Assembly: GCA_017549805.1 (NCBI GenBank)
Contig: JAFYNJ010000008.1
Coordinates: 62,001-126,000, forward strand
Source: Bacteroidales bacterium
GTDB taxonomy: Bacteria; Bacteroidota; Bacteroidia; Bacteroidales; F082
DNA length: 64,000 nucleotides
Direction: 5' to 3'
Under the pieces are notes generated by a model. It was not told where the DNA came from. It did no database searches and worked only from the letters and a program-made list of their open reading frames with translations. Made by a program: the position numbers and the translations under genes. Shown piece by piece: positions 21,469-60,834 of this stretch (position 1 is the stretch's first letter; the number at the start of each line of letters is the position of its first letter).

Positions 21469-21477
21469 CTTTATGTA

Positions 21478-21500
21478 GTTGTTAGTTGTTCAGTTGTTCA
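21478..21500. repeat. Octad repeat ahead of moxR
   Basis: Units GTTGTTA, GTTGTTCA and GTTGTTCA on the plus strand, i.e. TGAACAAC on the coding strand, ending 9 bases before the moxR ATG. The rest of the 146-base gap to the next gene is A/T-rich with no clear promoter. Confidence 0.7.
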
Positions 21501-28729: not shown

Positions 28730-28731
28730 GA

Positions 28732-28762
28732 GTTTTCAGTTGTTCGGTTATTCAGTTGTTCA
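28732..28762. repeat. Octad repeat filling the pta-ackA spacer
   Basis: Units GTTTTCA, GTTGTTCG, GTTATTCA, GTTGTTCA on the plus strand; on the coding strand each starts with TGA. The pta stop codon (28760-28762) is the TGA of the first unit, and the array ends 2 bases before the ackA ATG. Confidence 0.8.
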
Positions 28763-29770
28763 ATTTTTCTGGGCGATGGCCTGGTTACAGGTGATGGCCA
28801 CCAGTTTGTAAACATCATCGATGGAGCAGCCACGACTCAAGTCGTTGCAGGGCTTGGCGAGACCTTGGAGCACGGGACCCACTGCTTCGGCACCAGCCAG
28901 ACGCTGGACGAGCTTATAGGCAATGTTGCCCACTTCGAGGCAGGGGAACACTAAGGTGTTGGCCTTGCCGGCAACGGGGCTGCCAGGGGCTTTGCTGGAA
29001 CCCACCGAAGGCACGATGGCGGCATCGGCTTGCAGTTCGCCATCGAGGACGAGGTCGGGACGGCGTTCTTTGGCGATGCGAGTTGCCTCGATGACTTTGT
29101 CAACCACCTCATGTTTGGCACTGCCCTTGGTGGAGAAGCTCAGGATGGCGGTAACGGGATCAATCTTGGCGATGGCCTTGGCGGTGTCGGCAGTGCAGAT
29201 GGCAATCTCAGCCAGCTGCTCGGCAGTCGGCATGGGCGTAACGGCACAGTCGGCGAAGACCATGCGGCCATCGGTGCCGTAAGGACAGCCTTCAGGCAGG
29301 AACATGGTAAAGGCACCGCTGACACAGGTAACGCCAGGCACCGTCTTGATGATCTGCAAGGCGGGACGGAGCATGTCGCCCGTAGTGCTACGGGCACCGC
29401 TCACAAGGCCGTCAGCCTCGCCTGCCTTCACTAATAGGATGCCAAGATACATGAAGTTTTCAGCAAGGTCGTTGGCCTGCTCAGGCGTCATTCCTTTGGC
29501 TTTACGGATCTCATAAAGCAGGTCGGCGTATTTCTGTTTATCAGGATTGTTCTTGGGGTCGATGATGCGGGCCTTGCCAATATGTTGCAGACCGAATTCC
29601 GCTGTCATCTCTTTGATTTTTTCGGCAGGACCGATAAGGATGATGTCGGCTACACCATCGGCAAGAAGACGGTCGGCGGCTTTCAAGGTACGGGGTTCAT
29701 CCCCTTCGGGGAGCACAATGCGCTGCTTGTGGGCTTGCGCGTTGGCGATGATTTCATGCATTAAATCCAT
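28760..29770 (-). CDS. pta: Phosphate acetyltransferase
   Basis: A 336-residue short-form Pta. It makes acetyl phosphate from acetyl-CoA and phosphate. Motifs: RIVLPEGDEPRTLKAA at 18-33, LVSGARSTTGDMLRP in the middle, and GSSKAPGSPVAGKANTLVFP near 257-276. It lacks the extra N-terminal DRTGG/AAA region of long forms. It is first in a leftward transcript with ackA; a near-perfect promoter lies upstream (29854-29824), followed by a leader containing octads. Confidence 0.97.
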   Translation of the reverse strand: MDLMHEIIANAQAHKQRIVLPEGDEPRTLKAADRLLADGVADIILIGPAEKIKEMTAEFGLQHIGKARIIDPKNNPDKQKYADLLYEIRKAKGMTPEQANDLAENFMYLGILLVKAGEADGLVSGARSTTGDMLRPALQIIKTVPGVTCVSGAFTMFLPEGCPYGTDGRMVFADCAVTPMPTAEQLAEIAICTADTAKAIAKIDPVTAILSFSTKGSAKHEVVDKVIEATRIAKERRPDLVLDGELQADAAIVPSVGSSKAPGSPVAGKANTLVFPCLEVGNIAYKLVQRLAGAEAVGPVLQGLAKPCNDLSRGCSIDDVYKLVAITCNQAIAQKN

Positions 29771-29785
29771 GGTAATAGTTTTTCT

Positions 29786-29809
29786 GTTGTTCAGTTATTC
29801 AGTTGTTCA
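29786..29809. repeat. Octad repeat in the pta leader
   Basis: Three units (GTTGTTCA, GTTATTCA, GTTGTTCA on the plus strand) 15 bases ahead of the pta ATG, within the untranslated leader predicted from the promoter at 29824-29854. Confidence 0.75.
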
Positions 29810-31988: not shown

Positions 31989-32028
31989 GAGGTGAAAGAT
32001 AAAAGGTTAAAAGTGAAAGATGAAAGTT
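31987..32028. repeat. Six heptads filling the yidD-ctpA spacer
   Basis: Six consecutive 7-bp purine-rich units (for example GAGAGGT and GAAAGAT) start inside the yidD stop codon and end at the base before the ctpA ATG (32029). Confidence 0.8.
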
Positions 32029-33699
32029 ATGAAAAATATCAAACTGCTATTTATCGCCTTGCTGATGCCAATCTTCCTGATTGGTCAGGAAAAGCAAAAC
32101 AACTTTGAGATCTCAAAGAGCATCGACATCTATAACAGCCTGCTAAGGGAGTTGAACTTGAACTATGTCGATGAAATCAACCCCGCAGAATTGAACGAAG
32201 CCGCCATCGACGCCATGCTCGAAGGTCTGGATCCTTATACCGTCTTTATCCCCGAGTCGGAGATTGAGAATTACAAACTCATGACCACAGGTGAATATGG
32301 CGGCATCGGCGCCCTTATCCAATATGACGGGGAATACACCCGCATTTCCGACCCATACGAAGGCTGGCCTGCCCAAAAAGCCGGACTCCAGGCCGGTGAC
32401 GCCATCCTTTCCATTAATGGAGTGGATGCCCACAAGAAACCCACCGACCAGGTCAGCGAACTCCTCAAGGGACAACCCGGCACCGAGGTGACCATCAAAA
32501 TCAAACGGTATGGCTCTGACACACCCATTGAAAAGACCCTGAAACGCGAGAAGGTCAAGATCGACAACATCCCATACGCCACGGTGTTCGACAATGGCAT
32601 CGGCTACGTAAGCTTCAACAGCTTCACCAAGGATGCCGCCAACGAGCTGAAACAGCATCTGATCGACATGAAGAAAAACCATGATCTCAAAGGCTTTATC
32701 ATCGACCTGCGTGGCAACGGAGGAGGATTGATGAACGAGGCTGTTGATATCGTCAACCTTTTCATCCCCAAGGGCAAGCCCGTGGTATTTACCAAAGGCA
32801 AGTCACAGCATGCAGGTAGCGTTTATTCAACCAGCAACCAACCCGTTGACGAACAAATTCCATTGGCCATCTTGGTTGACGGCGGCAGCGCCTCTGCAAG
32901 TGAAATCGTCTCAGGTGCCATCCAAGACTACGACCGAGGTGTGATCATTGGCCAGCGCACCTTTGGCAAGGGTTTGGTTCAAAACATCCTGCCTTTGACC
33001 TACAACACACAAATGAAGGTCACCATCGCCAAGTATTATATCCCCAGTGGGCGTTGCATCCAAGAAATCGACTACTCGAAGAACGGAAAGCGGAGAACGG
33101 AAAACGATTCCCTCAACTCCCAACTCTCAACTCCCAATTCTCAAGACACTTTAGGAAAACCTTTCACCACGATGGCCGGGCGCACCGTTTACGAAGGTCA
33201 TGGCATTACGCCAGATATAAAAATAGAACCCAGGAAATACGCCACGGCAACAGCCTATCTCTACGCCAAGAACTACATCTTCGACTATGCCACCAAGTTC
33301 GCCTACGAGCATAAGAGCATCGCTCCTGCCAAGGAATTCAAGATCGATGATGCCACATACAACGACTTCATGAACTTCGTAAAAGAAAAGAAGTTCACTT
33401 ATACCACCGAGAGTGAAAAGAAGCTGAAGGAACTCAAGAAAATGGCCAAAGAGGAAGGCTATCTCGAAAGCCTGCAACCACAGCTGGAATCCCTTGAAAA
33501 GCGGCTTCAGGACGACAAGGAAAACGATTTGATCAAGAATCGCAGAGACATCGAAGAACTGTTGCGCCTGGAAATTGTGGGACGTTACTACTACCAAGTC
33601 GGACGCATCATGGCTTCTCTTGAAAACGATGAGGATCTGGAGGAAGCCTTCAACGTGCTGCTCAACAAAAACAAGTATGAATCCATCCTAAGACCTTGA
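32029..33699 (+). CDS. S41 (CtpA-type) carboxy-terminal processing protease
   Basis: A 556-residue periplasmic protease. It has a signal peptide (1-19), a PDZ domain (about 80-165) and an S41 catalytic domain with GGSASASE (285-292, catalytic Ser within) and the general-base Lys314 in TFGKGLVQ. Such enzymes trim C-termini of envelope proteins. The ATG at 32029 was chosen because it begins the signal peptide and abuts the heptads; an ATG at 32020 is in frame. Residues about 352-372 are encoded by nine heptads, replacing a variable loop between RCIQEIDYSK and the GRTVYEGHGI strand. The C-terminal 150 residues are helical. Confidence 0.93.
   Translation: MKNIKLLFIALLMPIFLIGQEKQNNFEISKSIDIYNSLLRELNLNYVDEINPAELNEAAIDAMLEGLDPYTVFIPESEIENYKLMTTGEYGGIGALIQYDGEYTRISDPYEGWPAQKAGLQAGDAILSINGVDAHKKPTDQVSELLKGQPGTEVTIKIKRYGSDTPIEKTLKREKVKIDNIPYATVFDNGIGYVSFNSFTKDAANELKQHLIDMKKNHDLKGFIIDLRGNGGGLMNEAVDIVNLFIPKGKPVVFTKGKSQHAGSVYSTSNQPVDEQIPLAILVDGGSASASEIVSGAIQDYDRGVIIGQRTFGKGLVQNILPLTYNTQMKVTIAKYYIPSGRCIQEIDYSKNGKRRTENDSLNSQLSTPNSQDTLGKPFTTMAGRTVYEGHGITPDIKIEPRKYATATAYLYAKNYIFDYATKFAYEHKSIAPAKEFKIDDATYNDFMNFVKEKKFTYTTESEKKLKELKKMAKEEGYLESLQPQLESLEKRLQDDKENDLIKNRRDIEELLRLEIVGRYYYQVGRIMASLENDEDLEEAFNVLLNKNKYESILRP
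33081..33143. repeat. Nine heptads inside ctpA
   Basis: A purine-rich half (GAACGGA and AAGCGGA units) is followed by a pyrimidine-rich half (ACTCCCA and ACTCTCA units). The 63 bases equal 21 codons and keep the frame. The peptide contains RRTEN and NSQLSTPNS. Confidence 0.8.
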
Positions 33700-35282
33700 G
33701 CTGGAGAGAACAGACACGGAAATACGAGCCGGCAGCTTACCTCATCTGTCTGGCCATCATGGCGGCAAGCCTTACCCTGTCGCCATTCATGATGAGTGTT
33801 TCCCAAATTCTCCTCTTCGCTGTATGGCTCTTCATGGGCGATCCCATCAAGGAAAAATGCCAACGGTTCCTTCACAACAGAATCGCCCTCGTGCTGGTTT
33901 CATTGTATTTGCTTCACATCATCGGTCTGGCATGGACATCCGACTTCCAATACGCCTTCAAAGACCTGAAAATCAAGCTACCCATCCTCCTACTGCCTTT
34001 GGTGCTATCTTCAGTGAAACCTTTGGAGAAAAAGCATTTCGACCTATTGATGCTATTGTATGTCTTGGCCGTTTTTGTTGCCACCTGCATTAGCTTCGGC
34101 ACCTATCTGCAGCACAACTATGAGGATGTCAGGGAGATATCAAGGTTTATCAGCCACATCCGTTTCTGCCTCAATATCGTTTTGGCAATCGGCATCATCG
34201 GCTATTACCTGTTCACGCGGCACGCCCCTTGGTGGGAAAAACTATTACTGATCGCTTTCATCGCATGGTTCCTCTATCTGCTATATATCTTTGAATCCAT
34301 ATCAGGATATCTCGCTCTTCTTGGCCTGTTGGTCGCTTCTGCACTCTATTTGTATTTCACTAAATTGAGCAGCACCATTTGGCGTGTGACCGGCATCCTC
34401 GTCATTGTCGGCCTACCTTTGGCGATTGGCATTTGCGGCTACCGTTTAGCCTCTGACATGCTGACGGTTCCCACAGTTGATCTCGACACGCTGGAGAAGA
34501 CCACGGCACAAGGCAATGACTATTGGCACGACACCATTTATTTCCCTGTGGAAAACGGCAAGTTTGTAGGCCTTTATTTCTGCCGTCCCGAGATGCGAGA
34601 GGCATGGAACATGCGTAGTGCAATGGATTACGATGGCTTGACGTCAAATGGCGAGAACTTGGAGGCCACCCTGGCAAGATACCTGACTTCCAAAGACCTT
34701 CGCAAGGACGCCCAAGGCGTTGCAGCCTTGACCGAACAAGACGTCCACAATGTGGAGCAAGGCATTGCCAACTATGTCAACTGGGAACACCCGGGAGTGT
34801 ATGCACGCCTTTCATCGACCCTATTCGAGTACAACCAATATCGCCGAAACAACAACCCCAACGGGGGATCGCTCTCGCAACGCATTGAATATACCAAAGC
34901 CTCATTGCACCTCATCAAAAAACATCCGGTTTTCGGAGTGGGCACTGGTGATATCCCCAATGCCTACCAACAAGCCTACGATGAGATGCAGTCTCCATTG
35001 AAACCCGAGTTCCGGCACAAGGCACACAACCAATTTCTTTCCATAACCGTAGGCTTCGGTATCGTGGGATTGGTGTTGTTCCTGCTGGTGCTTTGTTATC
35101 CTTATCTCTCATCGAAACGTTATCGGACCTATTTATACACTGTTTTTTTGGTCATCCTGCTGATTTCCATGCTACCCGAAGACACGATCGAAACACAAGC
35201 CGGCGTGTCTTTTTATGCATTATTCAATTCTTTGTTTATCTTTGCGTTCAAAAAGAGGGATGACAGTCCCGAAACAGAATAA
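33696..35282 (+). CDS. O-antigen ligase-like membrane protein
   Basis: A 528-residue polytopic protein with about ten helices and a large periplasmic loop (about 255-420) before the last helices, the plan of WaaL/Wzy_C proteins. The HPVFGVGTGDIPNAY motif followed by HKAHNQFLSITVGFG (about 405-450) is typical. It would join O-antigen to lipid A-core or polymerise glycans; which one is not decidable. The start is TTG, overlapping the ctpA stop (TTGA), the only start that keeps the first helix. Confidence 0.82.
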   Translation: MSWREQTRKYEPAAYLICLAIMAASLTLSPFMMSVSQILLFAVWLFMGDPIKEKCQRFLHNRIALVLVSLYLLHIIGLAWTSDFQYAFKDLKIKLPILLLPLVLSSVKPLEKKHFDLLMLLYVLAVFVATCISFGTYLQHNYEDVREISRFISHIRFCLNIVLAIGIIGYYLFTRHAPWWEKLLLIAFIAWFLYLLYIFESISGYLALLGLLVASALYLYFTKLSSTIWRVTGILVIVGLPLAIGICGYRLASDMLTVPTVDLDTLEKTTAQGNDYWHDTIYFPVENGKFVGLYFCRPEMREAWNMRSAMDYDGLTSNGENLEATLARYLTSKDLRKDAQGVAALTEQDVHNVEQGIANYVNWEHPGVYARLSSTLFEYNQYRRNNNPNGGSLSQRIEYTKASLHLIKKHPVFGVGTGDIPNAYQQAYDEMQSPLKPEFRHKAHNQFLSITVGFGIVGLVLFLLVLCYPYLSSKRYRTYLYTVFLVILLISMLPEDTIETQAGVSFYALFNSLFIFAFKKRDDSPETE

Positions 35283-35283
35283 C

Positions 35284-35766
35284 ATGAAAAAGCAACAATT
35301 CATCTCCGACTACGTCGTCTATGACAATGAAGGGGAACTGGATCCAAAGGATGCGGAGCTCCTGCGCCAGGCACACGAAGCCACTCTGAATTCCTACGCA
35401 CCCTATTCGAAATTCCATGTAGGTGCAGCTGTAAGACTGGCCAACGGCATCATCATCAAAGGCAACAATATCGAAAACGCCGCCTACCCCAGCGGATTGT
35501 GTGCCGAACGCGTGACTTTGTTCTCAGCTCAGGCACAGTATCCTGATGTGCCGGTTGAAGCCATCGCCCTTACGGCCCAGTCGGAGCACAGCGAAGTCAA
35601 CGAACCCATCGCCCCCTGTGGCGCCTGCCGTCAGGTGATGGTAGAGAATGAACAGCGTTCAGGCTGTCCCATGAGAATCATTTGCCAGGGTCATACGGGA
35701 CCCATCATGGTTTTCGATGGCATTGAGACATTGATGCCTTTTATCTTTGTGGATAAGTTTCTATAA
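35284..35766 (+). CDS. cdd: Cytidine deaminase
   Basis: A 160-residue enzyme that deaminates cytidine and deoxycytidine. Motifs: YAPYSKFHVGAAV (substrate side), CAER (zinc Cys and catalytic Glu) and PCGACRQ (two zinc Cys). The ATG at 35284 is used because an upstream in-frame ATG lies inside the previous gene and adds residues not seen in the family. It overlaps the GtrA gene start by one base. Confidence 0.95.
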   Translation: MKKQQFISDYVVYDNEGELDPKDAELLRQAHEATLNSYAPYSKFHVGAAVRLANGIIIKGNNIENAAYPSGLCAERVTLFSAQAQYPDVPVEAIALTAQSEHSEVNEPIAPCGACRQVMVENEQRSGCPMRIICQGHTGPIMVFDGIETLMPFIFVDKFL

Positions 35767-36170
35767 TGGTTAGACTTGGCATCAGCATTACCAAGGAATT
35801 CATCTTGAAATTCCTGAAGTTCGGCGTCGTGGGCCTCTCCGGCGTGTTTGTCAACTTCGTTGTGACATGGTTTTTCAAGGAGATCTGCAAGCTGAACAAA
35901 TATGTCAGCAACATCCTAGGCTTTGTCTTCGCCGCCACCACCAACTATCTACTTAACCGCTGGTGGACTTTCCAAAGCACCAACCCGCAAGTCGGGACGG
36001 AATACGCCAAATATTTCCTGATTTCCGTGGTCGGATTAGGCATCGATACTTTGACGGTGTACCTGTTCCACAATAAGCTGAAATGGAACTTCTACCTCAG
36101 CAAGGTCTTCGCCATTGGTGCCGCCACGCTGTGGAATTTCTTCGGGAACCTTTTGTTTACTTTTAGTTAG
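35766..36170 (+). CDS. GtrA family membrane protein
   Basis: A 134-residue protein with four transmembrane helices (about 15-35, 45-60, 82-102, 112-130). The FGVVGLSGVFVNFVVTW start and the NYLLNRWWTF motif mark GtrA. GtrA proteins help flip or use polyprenyl-linked sugars at the membrane; a role beside the ligase upstream is inference. The stop lies in a heptad array. Confidence 0.88.
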   Translation: MVRLGISITKEFILKFLKFGVVGLSGVFVNFVVTWFFKEICKLNKYVSNILGFVFAATTNYLLNRWWTFQSTNPQVGTEYAKYFLISVVGLGIDTLTVYLFHNKLKWNFYLSKVFAIGAATLWNFFGNLLFTFS

Positions 36171-36235
36171 GAATTAGGAGTGAGGAGTGAGGAATGCTCC
36201 CAACTCCTCATTCCTAACTCCTCATTCCTCACTTT
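36166..36235. repeat. Ten-heptad array with inverted symmetry (gtrA end)
   Basis: A purine-rich half (GTTAGGA, GTGAGGA) is followed by a pyrimidine-rich half (TCATTCC, TAACTCC). The halves form an imperfect hairpin: 36180-36196 pairs with 36209-36225 (15 of 17) around a 12-base loop, and GTGAGGAATG at 36187-36196 also pairs perfectly with 36223-36232. It lies between convergent genes, where no other terminator is seen. Confidence 0.75.
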
Positions 36236-36585
36236 TATCCTCTATCGTAATGGGGCATTTCCTCTGGAAGGATGATCGAAAACTCCACCAACCCTGCCGG
36301 TTCTAGTTTTCCGTTTTCCGTTCTCCGTTCTCCGTTTTCCTCTTCGTACCACGGTGTCTGATAAATCAGCTTTTTCTTTCCCTTTTTTGAGATGGTATAG
36401 ACGTTGGAGACATTCTCCTTCAGCATATGGCAGATCATCTCCCATGACCTTGGGTTGTGGCATTGCTCCAAATTTCTGCCCCGAGCGTCACCGTTCACGT
36501 CAATGGAGCTGTCGTTCTGATAAATTACATTGCCGTCCTTGTCACTGACGGTCACAGCGATATTTATACCTTTGAAATAGTCCAT
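36235..36585 (-). CDS. Small PAS-domain protein
   Basis: A 116-residue single-domain protein. AVTVSDKDGNVIYQND (10-25), NLEQCHNP and NVYTISKKGKKKLIYQTPWY match a small PAS family I know as stand-alone sensors, usually ending in a GLVEFSIILPEEMPHY-like tail. Here residues about 82-93 are encoded by five heptads and separate the PWYE and AGLVEF strands, an insertion in a loop. It may bind a small ligand or haem; no output domain is attached. The gene ends at the base where the gtrA repeat ends. Confidence 0.75.
   Translation of the reverse strand: MDYFKGINIAVTVSDKDGNVIYQNDSSIDVNGDARGRNLEQCHNPRSWEMICHMLKENVSNVYTISKKGKKKLIYQTPWYEEENGERRTENGKLEPAGLVEFSIILPEEMPHYDRG
36307..36341. repeat. Five heptads inside the PAS gene
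   Basis: TTTTCCG and TTCTCCG units on the plus strand; on the coding strand GGAAAAC/GGAGAAC. They encode an ERRTENGKLE-like peptide in the middle of the PAS fold. Confidence 0.8.
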
Positions 36586-36586
36586 A

Positions 36587-36640
36587 GTTGTTCAGTTATT
36601 CAGTTATTCAGTTATTCAGTTGTTCAGTTTTCAGTTTTCC
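36587..36640. repeat. Seven-unit octad/heptad array between DUF4249 and PAS genes
   Basis: GTTGTTCA, three GTTATTCA copies, GTTGTTCA, then GTTTTCA and GTTTTCC. The DUF4249 stop codon is inside (36631-36633), and the array begins 1 base before the PAS start. It is the longest octad array in the window. Confidence 0.85.
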
Positions 36641-37608
36641 GTTAAATCAATCGTCATTGTTACGGGCCTGCTTTGCGCACCGACCACCCCCACGCCGTTT
36701 TTCACATTAGAATACACCTGGATAGGCTCGGTGAATAATCCTAAGATTTCGTCATCATTCTCCTGATAGAGGTTGAGTGATTTCTTGTATCGGTAGAAAT
36801 TTTCATCCACCCGTGACACTTCCACCGTGAAAGGTTCCGGATAGTTGTCGGCATAGAAATTGACCCTCATGCTCACCGAATATTGCGTTCCGTCAAAATA
36901 AGAATCATTGAACAAATTATAGGAACCGCGTCCGTAATAATCTTCCTGTCCAAACAAGTCATCCACATGCACAATATCCATGAAGTCGGAAAATACAGGA
37001 TCGTTGGATATAAAGCCTTCGAGCCCATCCAAAGGACGTAAATTATAATAGTCTTTTCCTGCAGGATCGTCAATCTTCAGTGAGAAATAAATGTTCTTTT
37101 CACCATAGCCGTCGCCGTTTTCCACAATGCGAACGGTATCGAAGCTAATCACGTTGGGAGCATAGGGCATCTTGGTCTCGACCACAGCCACCTTGTCGAA
37201 CTCGCTCGAGCTCACCTCGAAACGAAGTTCATCTCCTTCACAGAGGAGATAGGTCCCTTCGCAATAGTTGAAAGCGCAACGCAGACGTTCTTCTGTTAAA
37301 ATACTATCCGGGTCCTCGCTCCAAATGCCGTACGTCTCCATGATCAAGGAATCGCGCACTTGCAACGACTCCTTGAAAACACCGTTCACATAGAGGTCCG
37401 CACGGACATCCTTCACCCGGAAATCCCTTTCGGCATGAATGACAAACGAACTTTTCTCCACACAGAGACGGGCTGGTTCGCCGACATGCTGCAAGCCGTT
37501 CACCACCAGCAGTGGTTCCGGGGCGATGTCATCATAAAGGATGTCTTTCTCGCAAGCCGTCAAGCCCGCCATCAATATAATGATTGATAATAATTTGATA
37601 TGTTTCAT
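36631..37608 (-). CDS. DUF4249 domain lipoprotein
   Basis: A 325-residue lipoprotein: signal peptide with a lipobox ending LTAC (Cys19), then a beta-rich domain with PLLVVNGL near the start and CEGDELRFEVSS (about 122-133) in the middle. This fits DUF4249, which usually sits next to a TonB receptor and may act as its outer-membrane companion, as here. Its final LTEN is encoded in an octad/heptad array. The spacer to the receptor gene is again repeat-made. Confidence 0.82.
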   Translation of the reverse strand: MKHIKLLSIIILMAGLTACEKDILYDDIAPEPLLVVNGLQHVGEPARLCVEKSSFVIHAERDFRVKDVRADLYVNGVFKESLQVRDSLIMETYGIWSEDPDSILTEERLRCAFNYCEGTYLLCEGDELRFEVSSSEFDKVAVVETKMPYAPNVISFDTVRIVENGDGYGEKNIYFSLKIDDPAGKDYYNLRPLDGLEGFISNDPVFSDFMDIVHVDDLFGQEDYYGRGSYNLFNDSYFDGTQYSVSMRVNFYADNYPEPFTVEVSRVDENFYRYKKSLNLYQENDDEILGLFTEPIQVYSNVKNGVGVVGAQSRPVTMTIDLTEN

Positions 37609-37609
37609 T

Positions 37610-37644
37610 CTTCTTGCTCCTTTCTACTGACTTCTATCTTCTTA
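37610..37644. repeat. Five heptads between the TonB receptor and DUF4249 genes
   Basis: Units CTTCTTG, CTCCTTT, then CTACTGA and related on the plus strand; TAAGAAG-like on the coding strand. They end 1 base before the DUF4249 ATG, as in the batC-batD spacer. Confidence 0.75.
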
Positions 37645-37648
37645 AAAA

Positions 37649-40126
37649 CTACCATTTATATTGCCAACTCAAGGTCGGAATGATGGGGAAAATACAGATT
37701 TGCTTTAGAACCTTTATCCGTTTATATTCATCTAAATCAGGATAATAGATCTCCTCTTCCCTAGGAATCACGACAAATGGATTGTTGTGGCACAGAGTGT
37801 TGTAGACATTGATGCTGAAGATACGCTCGCAATGTTTCTTCTGTTCGTGGAAATTGGCCACCAAGTCAAGACGCTGGTAGCTGTTGAAGCGGTAGTTGTT
37901 TCGGCTCTCGATATGGTTAATCACCGTCGGATCGTAATACCCGTAATATGCGTAATCTCCCAGTCCATGATAACCTTGTAGCGGTAACGTGGCGCAATTG
38001 CCCGAGCTGTAGATCCAAGTAGCACCCAAGTCGATCCAATCGTTGACATCGTACATCAGCACGATGTTCAAGTCGTGGCGACGGTCGTACTTGGCAGGGA
38101 ACACCTCGCCGAAGTTCAGCTCTTGTCCCGGGCGGTCGAAAAGGCGGTTGGCGTGTGCCCAGGTATAGCCCACCCAGCCGGTGAACTTGCCCACTTGCTT
38201 TTGGGCAAACAGCTCGATGCCATACGACCAGCCATCGCCCATCACCACTTTATCCTGCCAGTCGGTCTGGTCGAGCGAGAAGAACGAAGATCCGTCCTTG
38301 TATTCCATCACGTTGTTCAACTTCTTGAAATAGCCTTCCACCGAGAACTCGAATCCCTTCCAGTCGTAAAAAGCTCCCAAAGCCACTTGATGGGCATTCA
38401 TCGGGATGACGTTGCCTGTCACAGGCACCCAAAGATCGGTGGGCAGGCTGATGGCATTGTTTGAAAGGAGGTGGATGTATTGACTCATATAGGCATAGCC
38501 TGCCTTGAGCGAGAAATCCTCCGTCACCAAGGCCCTTAAGCTCAAACGAGGCTGAAGGCTGTGGTAGGTTTTGTGATCGACACTGAACGTGGAATAATGC
38601 AATCCGGCATTCAACTTGAAGAAATTGTTGATGCTCCAGTTGTCCTCTATGTAAAGGTCGGTCTCCAAAGCCCTGATTTTCGCATCGTTCGACACGCTAT
38701 CGAAGGCATAGCCCGTTTGGTTGTTTTCGGTCTCTTTCAGATGGACGGCTGTGGTCGTAGGACTATAAGTATGGAATGTGAGGTTGGCACCGAATTTAAC
38801 ATCATGGTTTTCGAATGGATTATAGTCAAAATCAGCCTTTGCACTGTAATCGTAAATGCCCGAATGCACTCCCAAGTCCATGCTTTCCGAATAGCTTGAG
38901 TGGGCGCTGCTCGACTCTTCTGAGAAGCCCGCCCCCATAAAATGTCGGTATTGGGTGTAAGCTCCGGTGACGTTCATGAAGAGGTTAGGCTGGATCACGT
39001 GGTTCCAACGCAAAGCGGCGATACGGTTGCCCCATTTCCAGTCGAGGTTCAGCTTTTCAATGCCGGTCACATGGCCATTATAATCATTGGAATACTCATC
39101 CTTGTATTTTATGTTGGCGTAAACCTTGTCGTCGCCCGAATAGATGCTGAGGAAGAGACGGTCTTTGTCGGAAAACTTATGGTTCACTTTCAGGTTGAGG
39201 TCGTAGAAATAATAGCCTGCCCAGGCAGAGGCGTTACCATTATGAATATCTTGTTTCACCATAATATTGGCCAAAGGCGCTGTGATCAGGTCATAGTAGG
39301 TGCGGCGGAACGAGAGGTTGAACGAGGTCTTGCCCTTGATGATGGGACCTTCAACATTGACCTTCGAGGCAATCAATCCCAAGCTGACATTGCCATGATA
39401 CTCATACATGTCGCCGTCCTTCATTCGCACATCGACCACCGATGAGAGGCGGCCTCCAAAACGTGCCGGGAAGTTGCCTTTATAAAGGGTGACGTTTTTG
39501 ATGGCGTCGGAGTTGAAAGCCGAGAAGAAGCCTGCTGCGTGGTTCACGTTATAGAGCGGCACACCATCAAGAAGGATGAGATTCTCATCGGGACCGCCGC
39601 CACGGACGTACATGCCTGCCGAACCTTCGGTGCCGGACTGCACGCCTGGCAGTAGTTGCAAGGCCTTGATCACGTCGGTCTCGCCGAACAAGGCTGGGAT
39701 CTTTTTCATCTGCATCATCGGCAATTCGATGGTACTCATTTGGGTACCTTTCACATTGCTCTCAATGGCGCGTGCCGTCACCGTCACCTCGTTCAGCTGG
39801 TTCGACTGCGCCAAAGCGATGTTGATCACCGTATCGTTCTTCAATTCAAAACGAGCTTGATAGGGATCGTACCCTACAAAGGAAGCCCTGAAATCCACTT
39901 GGCCATCGGTCAACTTCAAGGTATAGTACCCGAAGTTGTTTGTCACGGAACCTTTCATCGTGGCGGCATCATACACCGAAGCCCCCAACAAGGTCTCCTG
40001 ACTCTTGCCATCGGTGACATAGCCGCTGATGGTGTGTGATTTTGAGGTGTTTTGTGCCATCGCTGGGCCCATCGGGAAAAAGAGCGACAGCTGCCATAGA
40101 ATTAAAACCAATACCGTTTTTCTCAT
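37649..40126 (-). CDS. TonB-dependent outer-membrane receptor
   Basis: An 825-residue receptor with a signal peptide, an N-terminal carboxypeptidase-like beta domain (about 30-110, ISGYVTDGKSQETLLGASV), a plug domain (GGGPDENLILLDGVPLYN and following) and a 22-strand-type barrel. It imports a large ligand across the outer membrane using TonB energy. The start is uncertain: ATGs at 40144, 40135 and 40126 are in frame; 40126 gives the best signal peptide and leaves a short leader from the -7 box at 40160-40153. It lies just before DUF4249. Confidence 0.92.
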   Translation of the reverse strand: MRKTVLVLILWQLSLFFPMGPAMAQNTSKSHTISGYVTDGKSQETLLGASVYDAATMKGSVTNNFGYYTLKLTDGQVDFRASFVGYDPYQARFELKNDTVINIALAQSNQLNEVTVTARAIESNVKGTQMSTIELPMMQMKKIPALFGETDVIKALQLLPGVQSGTEGSAGMYVRGGGPDENLILLDGVPLYNVNHAAGFFSAFNSDAIKNVTLYKGNFPARFGGRLSSVVDVRMKDGDMYEYHGNVSLGLIASKVNVEGPIIKGKTSFNLSFRRTYYDLITAPLANIMVKQDIHNGNASAWAGYYFYDLNLKVNHKFSDKDRLFLSIYSGDDKVYANIKYKDEYSNDYNGHVTGIEKLNLDWKWGNRIAALRWNHVIQPNLFMNVTGAYTQYRHFMGAGFSEESSSAHSSYSESMDLGVHSGIYDYSAKADFDYNPFENHDVKFGANLTFHTYSPTTTAVHLKETENNQTGYAFDSVSNDAKIRALETDLYIEDNWSINNFFKLNAGLHYSTFSVDHKTYHSLQPRLSLRALVTEDFSLKAGYAYMSQYIHLLSNNAISLPTDLWVPVTGNVIPMNAHQVALGAFYDWKGFEFSVEGYFKKLNNVMEYKDGSSFFSLDQTDWQDKVVMGDGWSYGIELFAQKQVGKFTGWVGYTWAHANRLFDRPGQELNFGEVFPAKYDRRHDLNIVLMYDVNDWIDLGATWIYSSGNCATLPLQGYHGLGDYAYYGYYDPTVINHIESRNNYRFNSYQRLDLVANFHEQKKHCERIFSINVYNTLCHNNPFVVIPREEEIYYPDLDEYKRIKVLKQICIFPIIPTLSWQYKW

Positions 40127-40152
40127 GTAATTCATATTTGTCATCTTGAACG

Positions 40153-40160
40153 CAAAGATA
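40153..40160 (-). promoter_or_regulatory. -7 box of the TonB receptor gene
   Basis: TATCTTTG on the minus strand, 8 bases ahead of the first possible ATG (40144). If used, that ATG would be almost leaderless, which favours 40135 or 40126. Confidence 0.5.
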
Positions 40161-40201
40161 GTATTAAAAAGTATAATTTGCCTCTTCTTTCTATCGTTTT
40201 C

Positions 40202-41503
40202 TCAAAGCTTCAATTCTATTCCGATGCTTCTAAACTTTTCGTCGGTGACACCTGGCTTGCACTCTGGCAGAAGGTTGGTGAACACCCTCACGCCATGGAT
40301 AACTCCCAAGTGATTGGTGTTGAAGCTGAGACCCACTTCCAATTTCCAGGGGTTGAAGATGTCCTCCATGGGGGTCGTTGAGTAACCAAAACCACCTTGA
40401 ACAAGGAGGGTGGGATCGTTGCTGGTACGGAGAACCTCACCAATAAGGCGACCACAGAAGAGGTCTAACGAAAAGCTCTCGGTTTGTTGTTTGCCAAGAT
40501 AATAGTTCAAGGAAATCGGGATACCTAAGTAAGTGTTTGACAATGTGTTGCGTTGGTAATCCCCTTGTCCGTCGATTACCACCAATGCGTTGTCTTCATA
40601 GCTCACCTGATGGCACAAGTACTTCCTGTTCATATTCATCTGCAAACCTGTTCTCAAACCCCAATGGTTGCTGAAATTAAAATAGGTGCCAAGGCCAAAG
40701 TTGATTGATAATGTTCCGTTTTGCAAGAAGGGGCTGTCGGCATTTTTGGGATTGGTGCCTAAGCGGTATCCAAATCCGGCTTCTATGTTGATGGCGTTGT
40801 TCCAGATCTTTTTGTGATCGGTGGTGATCCAAATGCCATCCTCTCCCTTGCTTTTGATTTCTCTCCAATCTGTTTGCTGGTAATGCCATCCGGGCGTTAC
40901 TTCATATTCATATAGGATGATTTTCCCGTTTAATTGGTTTGTAATAATTTGAAAATCAGATTCATATAGTTTTACAGCGGCATTTGCTGTGCCGGAAATC
41001 GTATCCAAGGTGAGTTTAGAACGTTCCCAGACCTCGATGCCTGGTCCGCAAACCGAGTCGGGAATGAGGTAATGCTGGATGTGAAAGTCGGCGTCACGAC
41101 TGATGAAAATGTTGTCTAACCGGCAATCGCTTTGAGTGGCAATGACTTGGTTGGCTTTGACTGTTGCTTCGTTCATCAAGTTGATTCGTTGGAACTTCAT
41201 GGGGCCTTCAACCTCCACCACAGTGCCTCGTGGCAGTTGGGTGTTATCCAAGATGGTCAGGGTGTCGCCTTTCACGCTGCAAAGTTGAACGTTGAAGGCA
41301 AAGGGGGCGTAGTCCTCGTTGGTGACGATGGCGACGCGGTAGCCGCTATCAGCCTCGTTATGAAGCAGGTGTACGTCCCAACCGCGATTGATTTCCAGCG
41401 TGTTGATGGGTTGTTCGATACGTTGCTCGATGGCAACTTCTTCTTGGGCTAAGCCCATATTTAAAGTGAAAAGAATGGCGATGAATAAAGTGATGCGTTT
41501 CAT
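40202..41503 (-). CDS. Secreted protein with head domain and C-terminal barrel
   Basis: A 433-residue protein with a signal peptide (1-19), an N-terminal beta region (about 30-200) that resembles the GIN/DUF2807 adhesin-head type (repeating strand/turn, LEINRGWDVHLLH near the start), and a C-terminal half (about 240-433) with alternating aromatic strands like an outer-membrane barrel, ending RSIGIELKL. The family is uncertain. It lies between the anti-sigma-like gene and the TonB receptor and is probably part of the same regulated set. Confidence 0.65.
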   Translation of the reverse strand: MKRITLFIAILFTLNMGLAQEEVAIEQRIEQPINTLEINRGWDVHLLHNEADSGYRVAIVTNEDYAPFAFNVQLCSVKGDTLTILDNTQLPRGTVVEVEGPMKFQRINLMNEATVKANQVIATQSDCRLDNIFISRDADFHIQHYLIPDSVCGPGIEVWERSKLTLDTISGTANAAVKLYESDFQIITNQLNGKIILYEYEVTPGWHYQQTDWREIKSKGEDGIWITTDHKKIWNNAINIEAGFGYRLGTNPKNADSPFLQNGTLSINFGLGTYFNFSNHWGLRTGLQMNMNRKYLCHQVSYEDNALVVIDGQGDYQRNTLSNTYLGIPISLNYYLGKQQTESFSLDLFCGRLIGEVLRTSNDPTLLVQGGFGYSTTPMEDIFNPWKLEVGLSFNTNHLGVIHGVRVFTNLLPECKPGVTDEKFRSIGIELKL

Positions 41504-41514
41504 GATTCAAGGTT

Positions 41515-42363
41515 TTAATGGAGTTTGAGTTCAAAAGCCAGCGATCCGTTTTTCATGTTAGGATCTGGTTCAAACGGAGAACGGAAAACGGAAAACGGAA
41601 AGTTCTCAGTTCTCAGCTCTCCATTTTCATTTTTACACTCGTAGCATACCAGGTTGAGGCTCCGGATGACTCTACGCTGGGGAGGTGAAAGGTGAAAGGT
41701 GAGAGGTGAGAGGTCTTCTTCGTTTGAAGACAGTGTGGTGGTGACTCCAATATTATTAGAGGTGTCGATGGTTTCTGCTTTGGTGGATTCTATGGCGGTA
41801 TTTTCGGCTAACATCGGTTCTTCGTTGTTTGTTGGGGTTGGTTTAAGAGCTTTTGTTTTTTGAATTGTCGGTTTGACAAGCGTCTCTTCGGCCAAAAGTT
41901 TCTCTGGAACAGGTTCTTCAAGGATAACGGTTTCTTCCATGATTTCAACCTCTTCTTGAGTCGTCATGGCGTCTTTGATAAACGTTTCTTCCACCAGGAT
42001 TTTCTCATCTATATTAGGTGTTTTTTTCATGGCAGGCTTGGCAAGCAACCATAGCAACAAAAGGGCAGCGACTGCGCCGATTGCCCACCAAAGAGGATAA
42101 AGCCCTCTGCGCTTCGCGTCATTGCGAGGAGCGGAGCTTGCGGAGCGACGTGGCAATCCAACTTGAACTGGCTTTGTTTGGATCAGGTTGGATTGCCGCG
42201 CTCCACTGCGTTCCGCTCGCAATGACGTACCCGTCCCTGCTTCCAAGCTATCTAACAAATCGCTCAACTCTTTCTGCCGCCGTACGTTTCTTCCATGTTC
42301 CTCCAAGCTGTCCAACAACTGTCGCACTTCTTCGGTAATTTCATTTTCCTCTTTCATTATCAT
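41515..42363 (-). CDS. Anti-sigma-like membrane protein carrying three in-frame repeats
   Basis: A 282-residue protein that overlaps the sigma-factor stop by 4 bases (ATGA). An N-terminal helix (1-43) may bind sigma and one transmembrane helix lies at about 93-108 (AIGAVAALLLLWLLAK). The periplasmic part is low in complexity. Three repeat insertions are translated: a palindromic element (residues about 46-82, with SLRAERSGARQSN), a heptad stretch (217-227, LSPLTFHLSP) and a second heptad stretch (246-264, with LRTEN and FRSPFE). Without these about 67 residues it would be near 215 residues. The anti-sigma role rests on position and topology only. Confidence 0.65.
   Translation of the reverse strand: MIMKEENEITEEVRQLLDSLEEHGRNVRRQKELSDLLDSLEAGTGTSLRAERSGARQSNLIQTKPVQVGLPRRSASSAPRNDAKRRGLYPLWWAIGAVAALLLLWLLAKPAMKKTPNIDEKILVEETFIKDAMTTQEEVEIMEETVILEEPVPEKLLAEETLVKPTIQKTKALKPTPTNNEEPMLAENTAIESTKAETIDTSNNIGVTTTLSSNEEDLSPLTFHLSPPQRRVIRSLNLVCYECKNENGELRTENFPFSVFRSPFEPDPNMKNGSLAFELKLH
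41573..41628. repeat. Eight heptads near the 3' end of the anti-sigma-like gene
   Basis: AACGGAG/AACGGAA units (four) then AGTTCTC/AGCTCTC units on the plus strand. On the coding strand the purine-rich half again comes first and encodes GELRTEN. Confidence 0.8.
41683..41713. repeat. Four heptads in the anti-sigma-like gene
   Basis: AGGTGAA twice and AGGTGAG twice on the plus strand, translated on the other strand as a LSPLTFHLSP peptide. The array is close to the longer one at 41573-41628. Confidence 0.8.
42117..42227. repeat. 111-bp palindromic element in frame in a gene
   Basis: The outer ends are inverted: CGTCATTGCG (42117-42126) and CGCAATGACG (42218-42227). Inner arms GGCAATCCAAC (42152-42162) and GTTGGATTGCC (42187-42197) pair perfectly. 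The length, 37 codons, keeps the host frame open. The GCGAGGAGCG-type core resembles widely dispersed bacterial palindromic repeats, and the in-frame placement recalls Rickettsia palindromic elements; the relation is inference. Confidence 0.85.
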
Positions 42364-42845
42364 TCCTCCTTAATTTGGTTAATGGCGGTTCTCAATGCTT
42401 TATAAGCCCTCGAGATGGTGGCGTAAAGGTGGGTGCTGCTCATCCCGGTAGCTTGTTCGATTTCTTTATTGCTCATTCCCTCTTCATATTTCATTAGGAT
42501 GATGTCACGCTGTCGGTCGGGCAGCCTATCTACCAGCTGTCGGGCCAAGTGGTAGCGCTCTTCCAAGTCGTCCTGCGGTGCTTCGGCCAGCATCAGGCTC
42601 TCCGTATCAATGGGCACGGTGGGTTTTTGTTTCCTGAGCAAGTCGATGCTGCGGCGCTTCACCACCGTCAAACCCAGCTTTTCCAGATCTTGACTGCTGA
42701 TCGTCGAGCGTTGTTTCCATAATGTGATGACGGCTTCTTGTACGGCATCCGCTGCGCTATCAGGATCGCCGACAATGCTTTCGGCAGTCCGCTGCAAACG
42801 AGGTTGCAGTAGCAAGATGCTTCGCTTGAAGTCTTCTATTGTCAT
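42360..42845 (-). CDS. ECF sigma factor
   Basis: A 161-residue RNA polymerase sigma-70 family protein. Region 2 spans about 5-75 (AVQEAVITLWKQRSTI resembles the region 2.2 D/E-x-x-Q-x-x-F/L-x-x-x-W pattern) and region 4 spans about 105-155 with the helix-turn-helix EGMSNKEIEQATGMSSTHLYA. It is followed by the anti-sigma-like gene and then the barrel and TonB receptor genes. By analogy with FecI/FecR systems it may drive this cluster; no recognition box was identified. Confidence 0.9.
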   Translation of the reverse strand: MTIEDFKRSILLLQPRLQRTAESIVGDPDSAADAVQEAVITLWKQRSTISSQDLEKLGLTVVKRRSIDLLRKQKPTVPIDTESLMLAEAPQDDLEERYHLARQLVDRLPDRQRDIILMKYEEGMSNKEIEQATGMSSTHLYATISRAYKALRTAINQIKEE

Positions 42846-42894
42846 TACATTGATTCGTTTATCTATATATCGTTGAAGACCGCAAAATCTTACA

Positions 42895-42922
42895 TTGTTT
42901 TTGAGAAAAATTATTATCTTTG
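42895..42922 (+). promoter_or_regulatory. Promoter of the LptF/G-like gene
   Basis: TTG (42895-42897), a 17-base spacer and TATCTTTG (42915-42922) match the -33/-7 pattern. It leaves about 10 bases before the GTG start at 42938. Confidence 0.6.
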
Positions 42923-42937
42923 CATATTTATAGACAA

Positions 42938-44380
42938 GTGAAAAAGCTCTACAAACTCATATTAAAATCGTTTCTCGGCAGTTTCGTCTTCACGTTTTTT
43001 ATCGTGATTTTCGTATTGCTGATGCAATTTTTATGGGTTTATGTTGATGATCTGGTGGGCAAGGGGCTCTCATTCAAGATTCTCATGGAGCTGTTCTTTC
43101 ATGCTTCCATCACTTTTGTGCCCATGGCCTTGCCGTTGGCTATCCTACTTGCCTCCATCATGAGTTTCGGTGACTTAGGCGAGCATTACGAGCTGGTAGC
43201 CATAAAAGCCTCGGGGATCTCCATCTGGAAAGCCATGAAGCCGGTTTTCATTTTTTCAGTCATGCTTAGTGGTCTGGCCTTCATCTTCTCAAACAGCATC
43301 AACCCCGTGGCCATGCTGAAATTCAAGACGCTTCTCTTCGATGTCAGGAAGCAAAAACTTGCCTTCGATATCAAGGAAGGCGTGTTTTACAAGGATATCG
43401 ACAACTATGTGATCTATGTTGACAAGAAAGGGAAAGACGGCAGCACCATCTATGGGGTGAAGATCTACGACCATACTGACCGCGAAGGCAACAGCAAGAT
43501 CATGGTGGCCGACTCTGGATCCATGTCGTTGAGTCCCAACCAACGCACCATCATTTTTACCTTGTACAATGGGAACAACTACACAGAAGACAATTCCAAC
43601 AAACAAACCTTCAAATATAACCGACCCTTCGAGCGGATGTCGTTTCGCGAGGAACAGATCAAGTTCAGCTTGGCCAGCTTCGACCTGACCCGGTCCAACG
43701 AAGACCTCTACAAGTCGTACCAGGCCATGATGAACATCCATCAGCTCAGCACGGCATTGGATTCGCTGGAACGACGGTTCGACGACAAGCAAGAACTTTT
43801 TAGCCAAGGTTTCCAAAAACGTCTAAGCAATTATGAAAGTGGAAGGTTGAGAACGGAAAACTCTCAGCTCTCCGCTCTTAGCTCTCCGCTTCAATGGCCG
43901 CTTGTCGAGCATCTCGATCCCGAAACCCGAAGTGCCGTGTTGGATGTGGCCGTAGGCATATCGCGTAACGCCAAGGATAACGTCTCGTTCAACAAGCAAG
44001 ATTTCGGGGCGCAAGACCTCAACATCAAGAAACACAAGAAGGAATGGCACAAGAAATTCACCTTGAGCTTTGCCTGTCTCATCTTCTTCTTCATCGGAGC
44101 TCCTTTGGGAGCCATCATCCGCAAAGGAGGACTGGGGCTGCCTGTCGTGATTTCCGTGCTTTTCTTTGTCATCTACTATATCATCTCCACCGTGGCGGAA
44201 CGCATGGCCGAATTCGGCGACCTGAACATGTTCTTAGGCGTTTGGATTTCTTCCCTTTTGATCTTCCCCATCGGCCTATTCCTGACTTTCAAGGCAACCA
44301 CCGACTCCTCCCTGTTTGACGCCGACAGTTGGAAGAAACTATTTCACAATCTATTCCACAGAAAAACTTCAGCACAATGA
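42938..44380 (+). CDS. LptF/LptG (YjgP/YjgQ) family permease
   Basis: A 480-residue inner-membrane protein of the LPS transporter: three N-terminal helices (about 8-31, 51-75 and 95-118), a large periplasmic beta domain (about 130-355) and three C-terminal helices (about 371-450). It would work with the LptB ATPase encoded at 52.6 kb. GTG at 42938 is chosen because a TTG farther up lies inside the -7 box. Residues about 300-318, at the end of the periplasmic domain, are encoded by eight heptads and include RLRTENSQLS. It overlaps the next gene by ATGA. Confidence 0.88.
   Translation: MKKLYKLILKSFLGSFVFTFFIVIFVLLMQFLWVYVDDLVGKGLSFKILMELFFHASITFVPMALPLAILLASIMSFGDLGEHYELVAIKASGISIWKAMKPVFIFSVMLSGLAFIFSNSINPVAMLKFKTLLFDVRKQKLAFDIKEGVFYKDIDNYVIYVDKKGKDGSTIYGVKIYDHTDREGNSKIMVADSGSMSLSPNQRTIIFTLYNGNNYTEDNSNKQTFKYNRPFERMSFREEQIKFSLASFDLTRSNEDLYKSYQAMMNIHQLSTALDSLERRFDDKQELFSQGFQKRLSNYESGRLRTENSQLSALSSPLQWPLVEHLDPETRSAVLDVAVGISRNAKDNVSFNKQDFGAQDLNIKKHKKEWHKKFTLSFACLIFFFIGAPLGAIIRKGGLGLPVVISVLFFVIYYIISTVAERMAEFGDLNMFLGVWISSLLIFPIGLFLTFKATTDSSLFDADSWKKLFHNLFHRKTSAQ
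43835..43890. repeat. Eight heptads inside the LptF/G-like gene
   Basis: GAAAGTG/GAAGGTT/GAGAACG purine units then CTCAGCT/CTCCGCT units on the coding strand, the same order and peptide core (RTEN) as in three other genes. 56 bases are clearly periodic, so the flanks must hold one more base of the insertion. Confidence 0.8.
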
Positions 44381-60784: not shown

Positions 60785-60799
60785 TGTATGAAGTTTATA

Positions 60800-60834
60800 G
60801 TTGTTCAGTTATTCAGTTGTCCAGTGGTTATTCA
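60800..60834. repeat. Octad array between GH92 and phosphofructokinase genes
   Basis: GTTGTTCA, GTTATTCA, GTTGTCCA, then a GTG slip and GTTATTCA. The GH92 stop codon (60828-60830) lies in the last unit, and the array ends 15 bases before the next ATG. Confidence 0.75.

What the first reader, a model, noticed from the sequence alone, without database searches (positions are those of the whole stretch)
33081..43890. Same foreign peptide core (RTEN) in four unrelated proteins
Heptad insertions in ctpA (33081-33143), the PAS gene (36307-36341), the anti-sigma-like gene (41573-41628) and the LptF/G-like gene (43835-43890) are translated in the same frame and orientation relative to coding. Each gives R-R/L-R-T-E-N-like peptides from GGAGAACGGAAAAC-type DNA. 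In three of the four a pyrimidine half follows. The inserts lie in loops and spare the fold, which suggests selected or self-spreading in-frame insertion.
Basis: partly seen in the sequence, partly recalled or inferred. Interest (0 to 1): 0.82.

Follow-up and report, generated by a model that had tools for sequence, protein, structure and literature searches.

The report
Seven-base repeats that invade protein loops

Summary
The four arrays are real: GGARAACGGARAAC occurs 90 times in this genome, its reversed control 0 times. But 'same peptide, same frame' is forced: 7 = 1 mod 3, so such an array reads the same cyclic heptapeptide in all three frames; [RK]TE[NS] appears in 58 of 66 frames of intergenic arrays and 57 of 69 of coding ones. 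Three are net in-frame gains (ctpA +12 aa, PAS-like +8, LptF/G +6); the anti-sigma-like one is a replacement (+1 aa).

The wider finding is stronger. The genome carries many heptad words (about ARNKGAR), 18 times denser outside genes than inside, yet also inside core enzymes, twice in IleRS. Sister species carry different words in the same loops. In 70 IleRS genes all 31 period-7 arrays (score 9 or more) fall in three loops, with at least 10 state changes each in two of them. Two-arm elements run purine arm then pyrimidine arm in 20 of 20 within the genus.

Best reading: invasive heptad DNA, perhaps written at broken 3' ends, kept where a linker tolerates it. The writing step is inferred; no enzyme was found. 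New variant of a known kind: repeats inside protein genes.

The parts
32020..33699 (+). ctpA-like gene (PDZ and Peptidase_S41 domains), host of an array
   Evidence: ORF; Pfam; orthologues in 40 of 40 relatives searched
33078..33105 (+). purine arm in ctpA (AACGGAA, AGCGGAG, AACGGAA), read NGKRRTEN
33112..33144 (+). pyrimidine arm in ctpA (CTCAACT, CCCAACT), read LNSQLSTPNSQ
36235..36585 (-). PAS-like gene (name recalled; no Pfam match at E 0.001), host of an array
   Evidence: ORF; three orthologues
36306..36340 (-). purine arm in the PAS-like gene, five GGARAAC units, read NGERRTENGK; 24 nt longer than the loop of G022, G010 and G004
41515..42363 (-). anti-sigma-like gene (name recalled; no Pfam match at E 0.001) with two heptad elements and a pair of CGTC-type palindromes
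41573..41601 (+). purine arm on the plus strand (AACGGAR), so pyrimidine-sense in the gene, read FPFSVFRSPF
41601..41621 (-). second arm, purine on the minus strand (AGCTGAG, AACTGAG), read GELRTEN in the gene
41683..41714 (-). further array in the same gene, AGGTGAR on the plus strand, read DLSPLTFHLSPP
42920..44380 (+). LptF/LptG-family gene, host of an array
   Evidence: ORF; Pfam
43841..43861 (+). purine arm in LptF/G, read GRLRTEN
43861..43890 (+). pyrimidine arm in LptF/G, read SQLSALSSPL; G010 has an AGGTGAR array in this loop, G004 none
36167..36233 (.). intergenic two-arm element, purine arm (AGGAGTG type) then pyrimidine arm, at the end of the gene 35766-36170

Best explanation
The four arrays belong to a population of short heptad arrays found through this genome and genus: a purine-rich arm of words like ARNKGAR and/or a following pyrimidine arm. 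A genome-wide process whose words differ from species to species keeps writing them. Purifying selection keeps only those that fall in linkers: gene ends, spacers inside operons, and tolerant protein loops, where they must be net in frame and free of stops. SHOWN: dispersal, few words per genome, recurrent occupation of the same loops by different words, purine-then-pyrimidine order. FORCED BY ARITHMETIC: the common peptide. INFERRED: how they are written. I think it most likely that purine heptads are added to one or both 3' ends of broken DNA before the ends are joined: both ends extended reads purine arm then pyrimidine arm on either strand, one end extended gives a one-arm array. My odds: invasion plus tolerance about 0.9; writing at broken ends about 0.4; the figure below is for the whole.
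For: Period spectrum of 464 kb of this genome: 33 period-7 arrays, 5 of period 8, otherwise only periods 14, 16, 21 and 24; none in shuffled sequence at any period 2-24. 155 units use 35 words. 39 elements: 15 inside genes, 16 overlapping a gene end, 8 intergenic, that is 3.5 per 100 kb of genes and 63 per 100 kb elsewhere. Sister loops at 13 own sites: 14 arrays in 3,882 nt against 2 in 35,925 nt of the same orthologues. IleRS in 70 species: 31 of 31 arrays in three loops, 17 species, different words. AACTGCV units in IleRS of four species go with hits of that pattern in those genomes, 4 of 4 against 10 of 66 (Fisher p 0.001). Arm order 14 of 14 in this genome and 6 of 6 in relatives, also where the two arms are of different families. 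The IleRS loop that takes heptads holds other palindromic DNA in G345 and G370 (by eye), as tolerance predicts.
Against: No enzyme: Y1_Tnp count (rho 0.05) and RVT_1 count (rho -0.005) do not follow heptad abundance, and Ku is found in 0 of 99 genus genomes, so joining would need another route; the abundance measure itself is impure, since its reversed control also hits real arrays. In loci from other taxa the arm order is 10 to 4, not strict. 20 of 23 GGARAAC arms in called genes are purine-sense, which tolerance alone does not predict. Mixed words within one array are odd for a single template. Some IleRS arrays are shared by descent (own, G325, G375). IleRS also has 8 arrays of period 10.
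Confidence: 0.5

Rival explanations
1. Local slippage plus copying between arrays: a short chance repeat expands in steps of seven, and ectopic recombination or template switching through the shared GAAA-type core spreads and homogenises words genome-wide.
For: Arrays mix words in phase; in the PPDK loop own, G013 and G022 keep the heptad phase while the variable triplet differs; heptamers are reported there as the most abundant class of long simple repeats in most bacterial genomes, with slippage proposed (Introduction passage of PMC4679880).
Against: Does not explain the strict purine-then-pyrimidine order with arms of different families (20 of 20), nor why period 7 stands almost alone.
Confidence: 0.3
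2. A REP- or MITE-like mobile element moved by a transposase such as RAYT.
For: Dispersed, hairpin-like two-arm form, inside and between genes; REPs and RPEs inside genes are known (passages of PMC3733652).
Against: Arms differ between copies and within a copy; no shared flank or tag seen by eye in the listings (not tested statistically); Y1_Tnp counts do not correlate with heptad counts (99 genomes, rho 0.05), and 5 genomes with 50 or more matches have no Y1_Tnp hit.
Confidence: 0.1
3. Selected peptide: the RTEN-type insert is kept because it does something in the proteins.
For: In frame in several proteins; purine-sense bias 20 of 23 for GGARAAC arms in called genes.
Against: RTEN-like readings are as frequent in intergenic arrays (58 of 66 frames vs 57 of 69); the same loops carry unrelated peptides or nothing in sisters.
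Confidence: 0.04
4. Contingency (phase-variation) loci: gain or loss of 7 nt switches the host gene's frame.
For: In this assembly the aspartate-semialdehyde dehydrogenase gene is in one frame before its heptad element and in another after it.
Against: Arrays are short and interrupted; hosts are core enzymes; ASD is the only frame break I found among the in-gene arrays that I compared with orthologues, and an assembly error is not excluded.
Confidence: 0.05
5. Assembly or binning artefact.
For: Draft assembly, 7.58% contamination estimate; one out-of-frame gene.
Against: Such arrays occur at the same loops in separately assembled species, flanked by conserved coding sequence.
Confidence: 0.01

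Closest known systems
TAACTGA heptamer repeats of Beggiatoaceae, Cyanobacteria and five Bacteroidetes (PMC4679880; passages, and sections 9, 12, 15, seen)
   Same: Short arrays of a heptamer dispersed over a genome; the argument that translation gives one cyclic peptide and that stops fix the allowed orientation; some inside ORFs; other heptamer repeats noted in Bacteroidetes spacers.
   Different: There one word, mostly upstream of start codons, within proteins mostly at their ends; here many related words, in internal loops of core enzymes, different words in the same loop of sister species, ordered arms.
Intragenic REPs and Rickettsia palindromic elements (PMC3733652; passages seen)
   Same: Non-coding repeat DNA inside protein genes, in frame and tolerated; unrelated host proteins taken there as a sign against functional constraint.
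   Different: Palindromes of fixed sequence with GTAG or CGTC tags; here tandem heptads of changing word, no tag seen.
PARCELs (PMC2996958; abstract and outline seen)
   Same: Coding repeats with dyad symmetry that spread within genomes.
   Different: A 25-residue motif in whole repeat proteins, not short inserts in core enzymes.
Interstitial telomeric sequences put in at double-strand breaks in eukaryotes (recalled, no paper opened)
   Same: Short arrays of a purine-rich word on a 3'-growing strand at repaired breaks.
   Different: No telomerase or template is known here; several words per genome.
Long simple sequence repeats of prokaryotes (Mrazek et al. 2007, known to me here only through PMC4679880)
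   Same: Heptanucleotide class dominant.
   Different: Here few words, dispersed, with arm order and parallel occupation of loops.

Membership tests
Intragenic selfish repeat (broad kind) | Dispersed repeat DNA inside unrelated protein genes, in frame, absent from the site in orthologues | tested here: met
   13 own sites, each without an array in at least one relative read; 39 elements in 464 kb
REP / RPE | Fixed palindrome with GTAG or CGTC tag | tested here: not met
   The arrays are heptad tandems of varying word; no such tag seen at array ends, by eye
REP / RAYT system | Abundance goes with a Y1 (RAYT-type) transposase | tested here: not met
   rho 0.05, p 0.63, 99 genomes; the abundance pattern is impure
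MITE | Terminal inverted repeats common to copies, target-site duplication | tested here: inconclusive
   Arms differ within and between copies; target duplication not testable at this divergence
Simple sequence repeat (slippage) | Unit length variable and unit sequence local | tested here: not met
   Period 7 almost alone, 35 words in 155 units
TAACTGA repeats | That word | tested here: not met
   Not among the 35 words listed; the octads AGTTATTC contain its core
Contingency locus | Copy number varies within a population and switches expression | not testable with these tools
   One genome per species; one frame break seen
Telomerase-type end addition | Reverse transcriptase present with a template matching the word | tested here: inconclusive
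   RVT_1 in 7 of 9 heptad-rich genomes and 49 of 90 others, p 0.29; no template was looked for
Ku-type end joining product | Ku gene present | tested here: not met
   0 of 99 genus genomes; control found it in Bacillus subtilis

The most novel reading that the evidence does not exclude
A bacterial end-healing activity adds species-specific purine heptads to the 3' ends of broken chromosomes, like telomerase at eukaryotic breaks, before the ends are joined; each two-arm element is the scar of one break with both ends extended. Because a seven-base word reads alike in all three frames, a stop-free word is close to frame-blind, which lets scars persist inside essential enzymes.
Probability: 0.15. 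Interest if true: 0.92.

Novelty: new variant of a known kind. Interest (0 to 1): 0.68.

Why it matters
It points to a bacterial genus in which a mutational or mobile process writes the sequence of protein loops and operon spacers, repeatedly at the same places in different species, even in IleRS. That gives a natural map of insertion-tolerant loops and a set of many independent events with a polarity, from which the writing mechanism can be worked out. It also warns that shared odd peptides in bacterial proteins can be the arithmetic of repeat DNA rather than shared function.

Tried and rejected
Selected-peptide reading: set aside because of the intergenic null and the different peptides in the same loops.

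Y1 transposase as mover: no correlation. RVT_1 as writer: no correlation. Ku: not found in 99 genomes.

Terminator role for intergenic elements: not supported; of 20 counted 16 lie between tandem genes, several filling the spacer, 3 convergent, 1 divergent.

GGARAAC as an order-wide element: 72 of 295 genomes have a match, nearly all with one to three, and reversed-control hits are about as scattered; own (90), G240 (64), G098 (8) and G166 (5) stand out. The ARNKGAR triple is not clean as an absolute count: its reversed control also hits real arrays (own 281 vs 81; G010 373 vs 307), and in several genomes (for example G319, G124, G309) the control is the larger. In a phylum-wide sample 127 of 296 genomes have a match, mostly few.

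Structure prediction was not run: by its stated rule the tool takes window proteins and loci of certain tools, not those of the genome search, and a single-sequence model would say little about loops. Literature searches. In what they listed I saw nothing of this kind for Bacteroidales; only open-licence papers are held, and all but three papers were seen as listings only.

Limits and rows left out. The 13-site table takes the four sites of the finding and nine from the 464 kb sample; not taken: L082 93 and L083 9754 (ORF ends), L086 6552 and L100 13272 (left out of the query for length), ASD (out of frame), and the second array of the anti-sigma-like gene. Orthologues with an internal stop or a length not divisible by 3 were dropped there. 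In one search the 90 matches were grouped into 46 arms or sites, some being the two arms of one element; one had no suitable locus, so 45 were classed. Gene calls are from my own simple caller, and several 'coding' arrays lie within a few codons of a gene end or in short ORFs. The IleRS loop masks (112 of 1305 columns) were drawn after seeing the hits; IleRS was read for 70 of 99 genomes; the change counts rest on one gene tree, midpoint-rooted.
Full report
CHECK OF THE OBSERVATION. The four arrays are in the sequence and Tandem Repeats Finder reports them with period 7 or 14. GGARAACGGARAAC has 18 places in the window with up to two mismatches against 1.83 in shuffles, and 90 exact places in the 2.73 Mb genome against 0 for the reversed pattern.

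WHY THE PEPTIDE IS THE SAME. Seven is one more than a multiple of three, so a heptad array passes through all frames and each frame gives the same cyclic heptapeptide: GGAGAAC gives GERRTEN in all three frames, its complement VLRSPFS in all three. I grouped the 90 matches into 46 arms or sites; of 45 that could be placed, 23 lie in called genes and 22 do not. [RK]TE[NS] occurs in 57 of 69 purine-sense frames of the coding ones and 58 of 66 of the others. So the shared RTEN and the shared frame say nothing about selection. The same kind of argument was made for TAACTGA repeats in PMC4679880 (section 9). In the arms, the eight in genes whose purine strand has no open frame are all read from the pyrimidine strand, as stops demand. 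One thing remains: of the 23 GGARAAC arms in called genes 20 are purine-sense (binomial p 0.0005) although both strands are open. Many of these sit at gene ends (for example RKTEN followed by the stop, three times), so the bias may reflect a place just downstream of genes rather than the peptide; I did not resolve this.

ARE THEY INSERTS. Against orthologues of the same genus the ctpA loop is 96 nt against 60 in G004 and G002, 69 in G013 and 72 in G011; the PAS-like loop 69 against 45 in three orthologues; LptF/G 87 against 69 in G004. The anti-sigma-like site is 87 against 84 in two homologues and is better called a replacement. ctpA: the insert follows the end of the Peptidase_S41 match (residue 349). 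LptF/G: it lies between the two halves matched in solved LptF. PAS-like and anti-sigma-like are recalled names; neither protein has a Pfam match at E 0.001.

THE LARGER POPULATION. In 464 kb of this genome not chosen for repeats (window plus twenty adjoining 20-kb stretches) period 7 stands almost alone: 33 arrays, 5 of period 8, otherwise only periods 14, 16, 21 and 24; none in shuffled sequence. 43 arms hold 155 units of 35 words, roughly A-R-N-K-G/A-A-R. 39 elements: 15 inside genes, 16 overlapping a gene end, 8 intergenic; 3.5 per 100 kb in genes, 63 per 100 kb outside with the gene-end ones counted as outside. Of 20 outside genes with both neighbours known, 16 lie between tandem genes, several filling the spacer. 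Host genes, named by recall from their sequence, include PPDK, MurE, a GltD-like protein, ApbE, a biotin-dependent carboxylase and a MauG-like protein; IleRS, with two arrays, is also named by Pfam and solved structures.

THE SAME LOOPS, DIFFERENT WORDS. For 13 own sites and six relatives (not every relative has every gene), 10 sites have an array of score 9 or more in the same loop of at least one relative, and all 13 have at least one relative with none; the relatives' loops hold 14 arrays in 3,882 nt, the rest of the same orthologues 2 in 35,925 nt. The words differ. MurE: AGTTGGG and AGTTGAG read from the pyrimidine strand in this species, AGTTGAG likewise in a longer array in G010, an AACGGAR arm followed by a pyrimidine arm in G022, nothing in G013 and G011. 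PPDK: own, G013 and G022 keep the heptad phase while the variable triplet differs; G004, G002 and G011 have none.

IleRS ACROSS THE GENUS. IleRS was read in 70 of 99 genomes: 31 period-7 arrays (score 9 or more) in 17 species, all in three loops (columns 312-345, 713-726, 772-792 of 1305). Of seven other periods tried, period 10 gave 8 arrays, period 9 two, period 6 one, the rest none. Loop A is occupied in 14 species, B in 2, C in 10; minimum state changes on the gene tree 10, 2 and 10, while a single gain would need 31, 11 and 16 losses. Some arrays are shared by descent (own, G325, G375). Loops A and C are gaps in the alignment with solved IleRS 8c8w. In G345 and G370 loop A holds other palindromic DNA, in G356 a degenerate CGTC-like piece (by eye), so the loop looks like a general landing place.

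VOCABULARY. AACTGCV units occur in IleRS of G010, G330, G380 and G371. The genome-wide pattern is found in these 4 of 4 and in 10 of the other 66 genomes whose IleRS was read (Fisher p 0.001); outside IleRS itself the counts are 34, 3, 1 and 32. AGTTAGG, found in IleRS of G368 and G334, has 20 and 21 genome hits there but is also frequent in several others (G327 31, G008 23, G366 21), so this second test is weak. The ARNKGAR triple runs from 0 to 373 hits over the 99 genomes, with an impure control.

POLARITY. Wherever two opposed arms lie within 25 nt the purine arm comes first: 14 of 14 in the DNA held of this genome, 6 of 6 distinct ones in relatives (the second scan also required one arm of score 12 or more), also where the arms are of different families and cannot pair. 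In loci from other taxa it is 10 to 4. A MITE-like inverted repeat would need matching arms. Independent 3' extension of the two ends of a break by a purine word gives this order, and one-arm arrays when one end is extended. This is inference.

SEARCH FOR MACHINERY. Y1_Tnp count against heptad count: rho 0.05. RVT_1: rho -0.005; 7 of 9 rich genomes, 49 of 90 others. Ku: 0 of 99. No partner is identified, and the break-fill step would need joining without Ku.

A COST. The ASD gene of this assembly changes frame at its heptad element: after it the frame-0 reading no longer resembles orthologues while another frame does. Four orthologues have open frames there, two of them (G004, G010) with heptad-like peptides in the loop. 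Real loss, recent indel and assembly error cannot be told apart here.

NOVELTY. Repeats inside protein genes are known (passages of PMC3733652), and heptamer repeats in Bacteroidetes are known (PMC4679880). What I did not find in seven literature searches (open-licence papers only) is many-word, species-specific heptads that re-enter the same loops of core enzymes, and the strict arm order.

Noticed in passing
window 42117-42227: A pair of CGTCATTGCGAG-type palindromes, head to head, lies in frame in the anti-sigma-like gene beside its two heptad elements; 17 CGTCATTGCGA heads in 464 kb of this genome.
   Followed up: partly
window 21476-21500, 28728-28768, 29777-29809, 36586-36644, 60799-60829: Octad arrays AGTTGTTC/AGTTATTC, period 8, that contain the AACTGA core of the heptads; none of the 5 period-8 arrays of the sample lies in a called gene.
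   Followed up: no
L099 9117-9164 (ASD gene): The aspartate-semialdehyde dehydrogenase gene changes reading frame at its two-arm heptad element in this assembly.
   Followed up: partly
L090 13417-13456, L093 4394-4423, L097 4301-4326: AGATAAR arrays fill whole spacers between genes of one direction, two of them running up to the next start codon.
   Followed up: partly
IleRS loop A in L278 (G345), L293 (G370), L289 (G356): The same loop is filled by other palindromic-looking repeats in these species (by eye).
   Followed up: no
G240 (another family of the order): 64 matches of the GGARAAC pair, many clustered near C6:201,000-205,200, while most other genomes of the order sample have none to three.
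   Followed up: no
own genome, 45 placed GGARAAC arms: 20 of 23 arms in called genes are purine-sense, and several form the last codons of a gene.
   Followed up: partly
   Followed up: no
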